From the NCBI GenBank assembly GCA_005772895.1, contig SXIH01000037.1, positions 1-64,000 of the forward strand: a stretch of 64,000 bases of DNA, given 5' to 3'. Numbering within the stretch: the first letter of the stretch is position 1; the number at the start of each line of letters is the position of its first letter. The notes under the pieces are model-generated. The model was not told the origin of the DNA, made no database searches, and worked only from the letters and a program-made list of their open reading frames with translations. The DNA is from Bacteroidota bacterium. GTDB lineage: Bacteria; Bacteroidota; Bacteroidia; 2-12-FULL-35-15. A program made the translations under genes and the position numbers. This document shows, piece after piece, positions 35,410 to 41,366 of the stretch.

Positions 35410-37521
35410 TTGCTCCCAACAATGAAACAAAAAGCCATACAAGGATTTTTTACACATTTTTTGTGTTTGCTTGCTTTTTATTCATTTGCTCAGCCTTCTT
35501 ATAATAAAGATTCTCTTATAAGCTCTAAAATAGCTGATTTAACTGTGTTTTGGAAAAAATACAACGACATATCCAATGCTCGTCCTGTTTACGAAAGCTA
35601 TGCCATTATTCCTGAACTCTATGCTATTAAAGTAAAAGATTCGGTTTCAGTAGCTGATTATCAGAAAAAAGTAAATGATGCTAAAATTGCTCTTTTAAAG
35701 CAAGATATCGGCTTACAGGGAACTGCAAATTACCTTGAAAATTTTTCTCCCGGATTTAATTCCGATGATGATTTAGCTTATAATCGGAGATTTCAGGCTG
35801 GATTGGATTGGAATATACTTTCAGATGGAATTATTACTAATCGTTACAAGCAAAAAATATTAAAAAATGAAAATGCAATTCATTCACTTAAACCTAAAAC
35901 AAAAATTGCAGGAGACGAATACATTGCCATTTCTCATAAAATAATTTACGCTTTTAATATTCACAAAATAAAATTATTAGAAAAACGCCAGCAAATCATC
36001 AATGATAAAATAACGATTGCTAACGAATTGTATTTGCTTAAACATTTGCCACGTATCGAATTGCTGAATATTATGCAGCAGCAGGTGGACATTGGGAGTA
36101 TGAGTCAAATTTATAAAAGCTATAATGATCAGTTGGCAATGCAGTTGGACCCGGATAAACTTCCGAAAAATGTATTGCCTTTGTTTGATGTGGATATTTC
36201 CAAAACTTTTTCTTACAATGAAAATAAAATCGCAAATGACAGTATTCTGAAATTGCAAATTGCGAATCTGGAACTTGCAAACAAGCCTTTGAGTGATATT
36301 CGCTTGAATACACAATTGCGTTATAATTACTACGATTTAGTTACATCAACTGTTACAAACAGAAGTTTTGTGTCGGCAGGAATTGGTGTTTCTGTTCCAA
36401 TTCCATTGGGAATAAAAGCAAATAAGAATGTAGTATCTGCCCAAGCAAAATTACTCGAGTATCAGCAAAAAGAACTGGCATCTACTAATGAAACAGATTT
36501 ATTGAACTCGTTTTATGAATTCAGATACAAGTTGAAACAGTACAATAATTTTTTTGAGAAGAGAAAGAAGTACGAAGAGTTAATTCGTGTTGAACGGGTA
36601 AAACAAAAGTTTGGTGATTACGAGTTTAATCCTTTGGCTGCTTTGAATTTATTAGATGAAGTTATGGCTGTTGATATTGAGTTGTTGGACTTGCAGCAAG
36701 AAATGTATCTGCAATTACTGGATATCAATGCAAAAATACCGGGTTCCGAAGTAGCTGCTTTTATTCAACCTTACAAGGTTGATACTTTAAAAATTGTTCA
36801 CGAAAAAACAAATAAAGCATTATATATTTGGTCGGAGGCACAAACAAAGTATTCTCCTGAATACATTGAAGAATATGTTCGTTTAAATAAAATTTCTACA
36901 GCAATTATTTCTCTGAGAAAAGATCAGGCAAATAAAGCTGAAGCATTGGCATTATTCAGCAAGCTTAATTCAAAAGGTGTTCAATCGGAATTACTGGTAG
37001 GAAACAATAAATTGCTTTCTTCAAAAGATCCAAGTGTTTATTTGGATTCTATAACCAACGGAATTGATTTGAAGCTTGTCTCAGCAATTCACTTAGATGT
37101 TGAACCGCATGTTTTAACAGATTATGAAACTAATAAGGAGAAATATCTGAACCAATATGTTGAGCTGCTCAAAAAAGTAAAAGCATATTGTTCTTCAAAA
37201 GGTATGAAATTAACAGCTTCTATACCTGTTTTTTATCCGGAAACTATCTTAAAAGAAATTTATGCTCAATCGGATTTGGTTTATTTGATGGCTTATGAGC
37301 ACCCGAATGCTGAATATATAATCAGAAAGACAAAAGAAGAATTTGGATTTGATTTTTCTAAAACTATAATTGCTTTAAGAGCAAAAGATTTTAAGAACAG
37401 AACTGAATGTGAAAAATTGATAAATGAATTGAGTATAACGTTGAATACATCTAAATTTGCATTGCACGATTTAGAGACCTTTGTAAAATTAGATGAACAA
37501 AGTGTAAATCAGGATAAATAA
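35410..37521 (+). CDS. TolC-like outer-membrane channel protein fused to a C-terminal GH-like TIM-barrel domain
   Basis: N-terminal ~470 aa: signal peptide, two coiled-coil/barrel halves (LDWNILSDGIITNRYKQKIL; VSVPIPLGIKANKNVVSAQAKLLEYQQKEL). C-terminal ~220 aa: YIWSEAQTKY, AIHLDVEPHVLTDYE, KLTASIPVFYPE, DLVYLMAYEH. Confidence 0.68.
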   Translation: MLPTMKQKAIQGFFTHFLCLLAFYSFAQPSYNKDSLISSKIADLTVFWKKYNDISNARPVYESYAIIPELYAIKVKDSVSVADYQKKVNDAKIALLKQDIGLQGTANYLENFSPGFNSDDDLAYNRRFQAGLDWNILSDGIITNRYKQKILKNENAIHSLKPKTKIAGDEYIAISHKIIYAFNIHKIKLLEKRQQIINDKITIANELYLLKHLPRIELLNIMQQQVDIGSMSQIYKSYNDQLAMQLDPDKLPKNVLPLFDVDISKTFSYNENKIANDSILKLQIANLELANKPLSDIRLNTQLRYNYYDLVTSTVTNRSFVSAGIGVSVPIPLGIKANKNVVSAQAKLLEYQQKELASTNETDLLNSFYEFRYKLKQYNNFFEKRKKYEELIRVERVKQKFGDYEFNPLAALNLLDEVMAVDIELLDLQQEMYLQLLDINAKIPGSEVAAFIQPYKVDTLKIVHEKTNKALYIWSEAQTKYSPEYIEEYVRLNKISTAIISLRKDQANKAEALALFSKLNSKGVQSELLVGNNKLLSSKDPSVYLDSITNGIDLKLVSAIHLDVEPHVLTDYETNKEKYLNQYVELLKKVKAYCSSKGMKLTASIPVFYPETILKEIYAQSDLVYLMAYEHPNAEYIIRKTKEEFGFDFSKTIIALRAKDFKNRTECEKLINELSITLNTSKFALHDLETFVKLDEQSVNQDK

Positions 37522-37533
37522 TAAACTATAAAA

Positions 37534-40053: not shown

Positions 40054-41366
40054 TGTTAATGCGCTTCATAGATGAGTTCTACAACTATGCCACTTCGGTG
40101 GATATGGCTAAATTTTTCAGGATGTTCTGGTTCTTTTTCATCTTCGAATTTTTTCGTTTCTTCCTTATTGAGATCACTACTTTAGTTTTATGGAAGTTTA
40201 CCGGCTTTTTTCGCAAAAGTAGAATTGCAGATGCCCGTCTGACCTTATTGGAAAAACAACCATTCGTCTCCATAATTGTACCCGGTAAAAATGAAGGTCA
40301 GCATATTTATAAACTGGCTAATTCATTAAGAGAGCAAACGTATCAAAATTTTGAGCTGATAGTTATTGATGATGGCTCCGATGACCAAACTCCTGAAATA
40401 TGCCGTAGTCTTAAGAAAAACGGGTATATAGATGCCTATTACCGTAACGAGGTCCGAGGAGGAAAGGCTTCTGCTGCAAATTTAGGTTTGCGTTATTCCC
40501 GCGGGCAATATATTATTCATTTGGATGCCGACTGTTCTTATGACCGGGATGCTATTGAAAATATTTTAGTTCCGTTTTATTACGATTTAAATATTGGTGC
40601 AATTGGTGGAAACGTGCAGGTAAGAAATTATAAAGAAAGTGTATGTGCAACACTTCAAGCCATTGAATATATGGATACAATTTCTGTTGGGAGAATTGCA
40701 TCCAGCGAGTTAGGAATTTACCGTGTTATTTCCGGAGCGTTCGGAGCATTTAAAAAAGAAGCACTTGACAGATTAGGAGGTTGGGATATCGGACCGGGAT
40801 TGGATGGAGATATTACTGTTAAAATCAGAAAGCTTGGTTATAAAATACATTTTGAACCATCAGCCATTTGTCAGACAAGTGTTCCAAACACCTTTAAAAA
40901 GCTGATAAAACAACGGTTACGCTGGGATAAATCTTTAATCCGTTTCCGGTTACGAAAGCATAAAGATGTTTTTTATGCAAACGATTCATTCCGTTGGTCC
41001 AATTTCATTTCTTTTGTCGAAAATATAACTTACAATTTGATTTTAAATGTGAAGTGGTATTTTTATATCGCTGACATGATCATCAATTTTGGAAGCCAGT
41101 TATTCTTCATTATACCATTAAATATCTTGTTGTATACAGCAAATAATTTTTTAAAATTCTTAGTTTTTTCTCCATTCCGTGATCGTAAAAATGAATCGGT
41201 TTCTTATTTTATGATCTATCTTCCTTTGATGGTATTTTATTTCGGATACTTTTTAAGGATTGTAAGAACAACAGCTTATATTCAAGAACTGTTCTTTAAA
41301 GCATCTTACAAGGATAATTGGAATCCTGCAAAATCTTCCCGTCACGCAAAAGCTTTAAAATTGTAA
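40053..41366 (+). CDS. Processive-type family 2 glycosyltransferase (polysaccharide synthase-like)
   Basis: VSIIVPGKNEGQHIYKLANSLREQ, VIDDGSDDQTPEIC, HLDADCSYDRDAIE, GLDGDITVKIRKLGY, KQRLRWDKSL (QxxRW-like); multiple TM helices. Confidence 0.9.
   Translation: MLMRFIDEFYNYATSVDMAKFFRMFWFFFIFEFFRFFLIEITTLVLWKFTGFFRKSRIADARLTLLEKQPFVSIIVPGKNEGQHIYKLANSLREQTYQNFELIVIDDGSDDQTPEICRSLKKNGYIDAYYRNEVRGGKASAANLGLRYSRGQYIIHLDADCSYDRDAIENILVPFYYDLNIGAIGGNVQVRNYKESVCATLQAIEYMDTISVGRIASSELGIYRVISGAFGAFKKEALDRLGGWDIGPGLDGDITVKIRKLGYKIHFEPSAICQTSVPNTFKKLIKQRLRWDKSLIRFRLRKHKDVFYANDSFRWSNFISFVENITYNLILNVKWYFYIADMIINFGSQLFFIIPLNILLYTANNFLKFLVFSPFRDRKNESVSYFMIYLPLMVFYFGYFLRIVRTTAYIQELFFKASYKDNWNPAKSSRHAKALKL

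What the first reader, a model, noticed from the sequence alone, without database searches (positions are those of the whole stretch)
35410..41366. Candidate undescribed exopolysaccharide synthase-secretion operon (TolC-GH fusion / HlyD-like adaptor / TackOD1-pseudoGGDEF regulator / processive GT2)
Seen: four same-strand genes with gaps of 12 nt, 12 nt and a 1-nt overlap (TAATG), so almost certainly one operon. Established knowledge: synthase-dependent exopolysaccharide systems (cellulose Bcs, PNAG Pga, alginate Alg, Pel) combine a membrane GT2, a cytoplasmic regulator (often c-di-GMP-linked), a periplasmic adaptor and an outer-membrane porin plus a periplasmic polysaccharide-modifying enzyme. 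All of these functions have a candidate here, but the outer-membrane piece is TolC-like rather than BcsC/AlgE/PgaA-like and carries its own GH-like domain, and the regulator lacks a GGDEF motif. Inference: a self-contained polysaccharide synthesis and export machine using a tripartite-efflux-style conduit.
Basis: partly seen in the sequence, partly recalled or inferred. Interest (0 to 1): 0.88.

Follow-up and report, generated by a model that had tools for sequence, protein, structure and literature searches.

The report
Mxd-like exopolysaccharide synthase with TolC-chitinase fusion
Four linked genes in a Bacteroidota genome very probably make and export a sugar polymer; they match the core of the poorly understood Mxd biofilm system of Shewanella, but here the outer-membrane channel carries its own chitinase-like enzyme and the usual second messenger c-di-GMP appears to be absent.

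Summary
Window 35410-41366 encodes four tightly packed genes: (1) a TolC-fold channel fused to a GH18-like TIM barrel with an HLDxEP(H) motif; (2) an HlyD-type adaptor; (3) a TackOD1 zinc-ribbon protein ending in a degenerate GGDEF fold; (4) a GT2 synthase with DxD and QxxRW. The genes travel together: among 399 Bacteroidota genomes, the 13 with TackOD1 are exactly the 13 with this TolC, and all 14 loci hold all four components.

The interpretation (an EPS synthesis and export machine) is supported. "Undescribed" and "c-di-GMP-linked" are not fully right. The TackOD1-GT2-HlyD core also occurs across Pseudomonadota (15 of 15 bacterial plasmid records with TackOD1 have the GT2 beside it) and matches Shewanella mxdABC. 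An Aeromonas plasmid carries all four components.

The Bacteroidota version is a variant: no quartet genome has a Pfam GGDEF domain over threshold (0 of 13, against 81 of 150 phylum-wide), the window's genome also lacks PilZ and EAL, and the I-site RxxD is mostly lost. I call it a new variant of a known kind, one that ties the functionless TackOD1 domain to EPS synthases. Polymer identity and the activating signal remain unknown.

The parts
35422..36786 (+). N-terminal TolC-fold outer-membrane channel domain of ORF1 (ORF listed from TTG 35410; likely start ATG 35422, Sec signal peptide)
   Evidence: PF02321 E=4.6e-4; AF2 pLDDT 88.5; Foldseek to TolC/OprM/CusC, best E=3e-12, TMt 0.5-0.62
36787..37521 (+). 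C-terminal GH18-like TIM-barrel domain of ORF1 (residues about 460-703, numbered from the TTG), with H561-L-D563-V-E565-P-H567 and M627-A-Y629; expected to lie in the periplasm
   Evidence: Foldseek to GH18 chitinases E=3e-5 to 2e-4; D563, E565, M627, Y629 conserved in 73 of 74 and D687 in all homologues
37534..38616 (+). HlyD/EmrA-type periplasmic adaptor, one N-terminal TM segment (residues 30-48)
   Evidence: PF13437 26.4 bits (cut-off 22.2); weak TIGR00998 EmrA match; TM scan
38629..40053 (+). MxdA-like regulator: receiver-like N-terminus (about 1-115), TackOD1 (125-309; 5 CxxC + HxxC, 11 Cys), degenerate GGDEF fold (about 335-474)
   Evidence: PF18551 E=1.3e-50; cysteines; GGDEF fold; no GGDEF motif in 240 homologues; profile match to the Shewanella/Vibrio family E=2e-46 over 406 columns
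40053..41366 (+). Processive-type GT2 synthase (MxdB/PgaC/NodC-like): DAD, (G)LD in place of (T)ED, QRLRW, several TM segments
   Evidence: PF00535 E=1e-29; PgaC_IcaA model 179 bits, below its cut-off of 422; motifs and tree

Best explanation
It is an Mxd-like, synthase-dependent exopolysaccharide machine. GT2 (40053-41366) polymerises a sugar nucleotide on the cytoplasmic side and passes the chain through the inner membrane. The HlyD-type adaptor (37534-38616) bridges the periplasm to the TolC-fold channel (35422-37521). The channel's own GH18-like domain, which should sit on the periplasmic side after TolC's last helix, trims or edits the chain before or during export. The TackOD1/pseudo-GGDEF protein (38629-40053) is a cytoplasmic subunit that switches the synthase. 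In Gammaproteobacteria this switch reads c-di-GMP (MxdA); here it must read something else, such as a protein partner or a metal/redox state through its zinc ribbons. Shown: sequences, folds, catalytic motifs, conserved linkage, shared ancestry of the TackOD1-linked GT2s, and absence of detectable c-di-GMP proteins from the window's genome. Inferred: polymer export, the adaptor-channel contact, the GH's role, and TackOD1 acting directly on GT2. Weakest inference: the polymer contains N-acetylhexosamine, suggested by the GH18 mechanism and by PgaC being the nearest named GT2.
For: Operon-like packing. All four components at 14 of 14 TackOD1 loci from 13 genomes in 4 families of Bacteroidota, plus 6 closer relatives, one of which is cut off by its contig end before TolC. 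The TolC-family profile gives strong hits in the same 13 of 399 genomes. TackOD1 beside GT2 in 15 of 15 bacterial plasmid records from Alpha- and Gammaproteobacteria, with HlyD close by in the records whose neighbourhoods were read, and no GT2 neighbour in the one haloarchaeal record read; none of the 5 haloarchaeal records is among the listed GT2 hits (coordinates). TackOD1-linked GT2s form one clade (98/96) apart from PgaC, IcaA and BcsA. Folds. Aeromonas caviae pKAM345_3 carries TackOD1-GT2-TolC(694 aa, C-terminal HLDLE)-HlyD. Shewanella mxdA and mxdB deletions abolish aggregation and reduce biofilm (PMC3691769); MxdA has a degenerate GGDEF (PMC3409153) and binds c-di-GMP (PMC7666153).
Against: MxdA itself (SO4180) was not in reach: its identity with TackOD1 proteins is inferred from other Shewanella TackOD1 proteins (P0341, P0344) and published descriptions. 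GT2 and HlyD similarity to named EPS systems is below curated cut-offs. No polymer, activity or interaction has been shown. TolC and adaptor might serve another substrate. The E of the TED motif is replaced by L/M in all Bacteroidota members (D is kept). Most of the plasmid loci examined have no TolC next to the core.
Confidence: 0.8

Rival explanations
1. A divergent Pga/Ica-type poly-N-acetylglucosamine system in which TolC-HlyD replaced PgaA and the GH18-like domain replaced PgaB's hydrolase half.
For: Best named GT2 model is PgaC_IcaA at 179 bits; PgaC/IcaA are among the next plasmid hits after the TackOD1-linked GT2s; a GH18-like enzyme fits an N-acetylhexosamine polymer (established GH18 mechanism).
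Against: Score far below the PgaC cut-off of 422; the GT2 lies outside the PgaC/IcaA/L. brevis clade; no deacetylase, PgaA or PgaD in the operon; TackOD1 and HlyD are foreign to Pga.
Confidence: 0.1
2. A cellulose-type or Xcs-type system like the cyanobacterial XcsAB-TolC proposal, making a beta-glucan.
For: Same conduit logic, GT2 + HlyD + TolC (PMC12430437).
Against: CelA match only 36 bits against a cut-off of 699; no PilZ in the genome; BcsA lies outside the TackOD1-linked clade, on a long branch; the hydrolase is GH18-like, not an endoglucanase.
Confidence: 0.05
3. The TolC/HlyD pair is a drug or protein efflux conduit, and GT2 with TackOD1 make a membrane glycolipid; the four genes share only an operon.
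For: TolC and HlyD are best known from efflux; the adaptor's best family model is EmrA-like.
Against: No ABC, MFS or RND pump in the operon; GT2 takes the inner-membrane place; QxxRW (processive type) is conserved; GT2-HlyD-TackOD1 is conserved across two phyla.
Confidence: 0.05

Closest known systems
Shewanella oneidensis Mxd system (mxdABCD; PMC3691769, PMC7666153, PMC3409153)
   Same: Degenerate-GGDEF regulator (MxdA), GT2 (MxdB) and efflux-type adaptor (MxdC) as an EPS/biofilm operon; Shewanella encodes TackOD1 + GGDEF-like proteins, which match the window family across 406 columns.
   Different: The window adds a TolC-GH18 fusion as first gene; no mxdD counterpart was identified; c-di-GMP I-site and c-di-GMP enzymes are missing; gene order differs (channel-adaptor-regulator-GT2).
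Aeromonas caviae plasmid pKAM345_3 TackOD1-GT2-TolC-HlyD cluster
   Same: All four components, including a long TolC with a C-terminal HLDLE-bearing domain.
   Different: Very divergent TolC-GH (no significant BLAST alignment); different order; the domain match is weak (hhalign probability 36%, E=4e-4).
Pga/Ica poly-GlcNAc systems
   Same: GT2 synthase, periplasmic glycoside hydrolase activity, outer-membrane pore.
   Different: PgaA is a beta-barrel/TPR porin and PgaB a separate deacetylase-hydrolase; GT2 lies in a different clade.
Cyanobacterial XcsAB-TolC cellulose proposal (Maeda 2018, via PMC12430437)
   Same: GT2 + HlyD + TolC tripartite conduit.
   Different: PilZ-bearing BcsA-type synthase; genes scattered in T. 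vulcanus; endoglucanase not fused to TolC; no TackOD1 reported.
TackOD1, PF18551 (PMC5847659)
   Same: 5 CxxC + HxxC, 11 Cys.
   Different: Described as a response-regulator output domain in archaea with obscure function; here fused to a pseudo-GGDEF beside a GT2.

Membership tests
TackOD1 domain (PF18551) | Pfam score over cut-off | tested here: met
   172 bits against 32
TackOD1 domain (PF18551) | 11 Cys forming 5 CxxC and one HxxC | tested here: met
   C196/199, 210/213, 248/251, 271/274, 287/290, H226-C229 (definition PMC5847659)
Mxd system | Regulator with degenerate GGDEF domain next to a GT2 and an efflux-type adaptor | tested here: met
   gene set as described in PMC3691769 and PMC3409153
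Mxd system | Regulator homologous to MxdA over its length | tested here: inconclusive
Mxd system | Regulator binds c-di-GMP | tested here: not met
   Computed proxies only: RxxD I-site not conserved (R in 15 of 65; K in the window); no GGDEF, PilZ or EAL in the genome. Binding not tested. It is therefore filed as Mxd-like, not as Mxd.
Mxd system | mxdD gene present | not testable with these tools
TolC/OEP outer-membrane factor | TolC fold | tested here: met
   Foldseek E=3e-12 to TolC; PF02321 slightly under cut-off (20.5 against 22)
GH18 | TIM barrel with DxxDxDxE | tested here: inconclusive
   Barrel and terminal DxE kept, but the preceding D is H561; no Pfam GH hit. 'GH18-like', not GH18.
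Pga/Ica | PgaC equivalog score and PgaB/PgaA partners | tested here: not met
   179 bits against 422; no partners in the operon
Bcs/Xcs cellulose synthase | BcsA/CelA equivalog with PilZ | tested here: not met
   36 bits against 699; no PilZ in the genome
Diguanylate cyclase | GG(D/E)EF motif | tested here: not met
   Absent in the window and in 240 homologues

The most novel reading that the evidence does not exclude
TackOD1 is a dedicated switch subunit of a wide, unrecognised class of exopolysaccharide synthases (Mxd-type GT2 + HlyD adaptor) spanning Bacteroidota and Pseudomonadota. In Bacteroidota the switch has been uncoupled from c-di-GMP and the export channel is a TolC fused to a GH18-like editing enzyme.
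Probability: 0.5. Interest if true: 0.75.

Novelty: new variant of a known kind. Interest (0 to 1): 0.58.

Why it matters
TackOD1 has been a domain without a function (PMC5847659). Its near-invariant pairing with one GT2 clade in bacteria gives it a testable role, and places the isolated Mxd system of Shewanella in a family spanning two phyla. A TolC channel carrying its own glycan hydrolase would be an unusual way to couple trimming to export. A pseudo-GGDEF synthase switch in genomes without c-di-GMP enzymes raises a concrete question: what replaced the ligand?

Tried and rejected
PDB sequence searches for ORF1 and HlyD alone found nothing; a profile search of ORF1 gave only weak hits, including one chitinase. 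A literature search for a TolC-GH fusion gave nothing relevant. Searching held papers for NVDEF in Shewanella, a motif I recall for MxdA, found none, although two Shewanella-type TackOD1 proteins contain it; it is not used as proof. The promoter scan equals shuffles and is not informative. A sub-cut-off GGDEF hit in G209 lies right beside the TackOD1 match, on the same strand and in an open frame of the same length, so it is taken as that protein's pseudo-GGDEF. I considered claiming anti-correlation of the quartet with GGDEF enzymes (0/13 against 81/150) but rejected it as confounded by lineage: nearly all listed genomes of the window's own class lack GGDEF.

Full report
Observation. The four ORFs are real, on the + strand, at 35410-37521, 37534-38616, 38629-40053 and 40053-41366, with the stated 12-nt and 12-nt gaps and a 1-nt TAATG overlap. 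ORF1 probably starts at ATG 35422, giving 699 aa like most close homologues.

Anatomy of ORF1. By sequence the TolC part is marginal (PF02321 at 20.5 bits, cut-off 22). By structure it is clear: AlphaFold2 on a 74-sequence alignment gave pLDDT 88.5, and Foldseek returned TolC, OprM and CusC (best E=3e-12, TMt 0.5-0.62), then GH18 chitinases for the C-terminal barrel (5jh8 E=3e-5, 7z64 E=8e-5). H561, D563, E565, P566, M627 and Y629 are each kept in 73 of 74 homologues and D687 in all. D563-x-E565 corresponds to the end of the GH18 DxxDxDxE motif, but the preceding Asp is His, so I call the domain GH18-like. Because TolC's C-terminus is periplasmic (established knowledge), this domain should face the periplasm, where PgaB, AlgL and BcsZ act in other systems.

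Anatomy of ORF2-4. ORF2 is an HlyD/EmrA-type adaptor with one TM segment. ORF3 is a TackOD1 protein (172 bits) with the diagnostic 5 CxxC + HxxC (definition in PMC5847659), a receiver-like N-terminus (inferred from the model's alternating strands and helices, and from true receiver domains at the N-terminus of the Palleronia and Roseibium proteins) and a GGDEF fold. None of 240 homologues has the GGDEF motif. ORF4 is a GT2 with DAD and QRLRW. All Bacteroidota members have LD or MD where others have ED, so the proposed base Asp is kept.

Conservation. TackOD1 scores over its cut-off in 13 of 399 Bacteroidota genomes at 14 loci (families f1, f4, f6, f25). All 14 loci contain TolC, HlyD, TackOD1 and GT2 in one cluster, one of them (L032) with TolC cut by the contig end. 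An independent search with the TolC-GH profile gave strong hits in the same 13 genomes only (Fisher p about 1e-24, uncorrected for relatedness). Six closer relatives from GTDB show the same module; L039 starts after TolC. Variation is informative. Some f25 genomes and one G209 copy have a TolC without the GH part, with a UDP-glucose/GDP-mannose dehydrogenase and, in L025, a DUF4114 protein inside the cluster, hinting at uronic acid. Others have a second copy of the receiver-like N-terminus as a separate gene of about 110 aa. Some homologues of ORF1 add a PF14870 repeat domain.

Beyond Bacteroidota. A tblastn search of plasmids with ORF3 hit 20 records: 15 bacterial and 5 haloarchaeal. In all 15 bacterial records a GT2 match lies within about 1 kb of TackOD1 (coordinates; read directly), with HlyD close by where read. 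The window GT2's best 13 listed plasmid hits are all TackOD1-linked; PgaC/IcaA come after. In a tree these GT2s, plus a Sinorhizobium GT2 that itself sits by HlyD and a small TackOD1-like zinc ribbon, form one clade (98/96) apart from PgaC, IcaA and BcsA. BcsA and the outgroup sit on long branches, so their exact places are unsure. Aeromonas caviae pKAM345_3, a mobilizable plasmid, carries TackOD1-GT2-TolC(694 aa)-HlyD across its origin. Its TolC ends in a domain with HLDLE that aligns weakly with the window's GH region (hhalign E=4e-4, probability 36%). Two-phylum occurrence of the fusion is thus likely but not proven.

Identity with Mxd. Shewanella mxdABCD is required for three-dimensional biofilm. 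MxdB is a membrane GT2, MxdC resembles an efflux pump, MxdD is unknown (PMC3691769); MxdA has a degenerate GGDEF (PMC3409153) and is a c-di-GMP effector (PMC7666153). Shewanella encodes TackOD1 + GGDEF-like proteins (P0341, P0344), which align with the window family over 406 columns at E=2e-46. I could not obtain SO4180 itself, so MxdA = TackOD1 protein is a strong inference, not a test.

c-di-GMP. The Gammaproteobacterial proteins keep (R/K)xTD at the I-site position in 13 of 13; in Bacteroidota R is present in 15 of 65 and the window has K. The window's genome (93% complete) has no GGDEF, PilZ or EAL hit, while control genomes ring. None of the 13 quartet genomes has a GGDEF hit over the cut-off, against 81 of 150 across the phylum. 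Lineage confounds the comparison, but c-di-GMP control is unlikely here. The ligand or partner that replaced it is unknown.

Mechanism. GT2 makes the chain, HlyD bridges to the TolC channel, the tethered GH18-like domain trims it, and TackOD1/pseudo-GGDEF gates the synthase. The first three follow from fold and module logic; the last rests on linkage and on MxdA biology. The polymer probably varies between lineages: galE follows HlyD in Rhodobacterales, and a sugar dehydrogenase is inside some Bacteroidota clusters. For the window an N-acetylhexosamine polymer is my weak guess.

Verdict. What is new is the TolC-GH18 channel, loss of c-di-GMP input, and the recognition that bacterial TackOD1 belongs to this machine.

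Noticed in passing
L025 9716-13238 (also L023, L026, L027): Inside quartets whose TolC lacks the GH domain sits a UDP-glucose/GDP-mannose dehydrogenase gene (shown for L023 and L025) and, in L025, a DUF4114 protein; suggests a uronic-acid polymer in that branch.
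   Followed up: partly
L024, L028, L029, L032, L033, L034: A separate gene of about 110 aa, similar to the receiver-like N-terminus of the TackOD1 protein, lies between HlyD and TackOD1; a PAS-histidine kinase gene lies upstream in L033.
   Followed up: partly
P0040-P0056: Homologues of ORF1 about 850-900 aa long carry an extra PF14870 (YCF48/BNR-like) repeat domain.
   Followed up: no
L061/L068 (Aeromonas caviae pKAM345_3): A mobilizable 29-kb plasmid carries the complete four-component module.
   Followed up: partly
L075 4839-7430 (Sinorhizobium medicae plasmid): GT2-HlyD followed by a 109-aa zinc-ribbon protein resembling a trimmed TackOD1; the GT2 falls in the TackOD1-linked clade.
   Followed up: partly
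G209:C116 (L023, L024): One genome holds two different quartets about 15 kb apart: one with a TolC-GH fusion, one with a TolC without it plus a sugar dehydrogenase.
   Followed up: no
window 34346-35296: ArnC/DPM-like polyprenyl-phosphate glycosyltransferase just upstream on the same strand; adjacent in near relatives only, so not counted as part of the module.
   Followed up: partly
L038 11399-14041: In this relative a CotH-kinase/LTD protein with a type IX sorting tail lies downstream of the GT2 gene; an ORF of similar size is there in L039 and L041.
   Followed up: no
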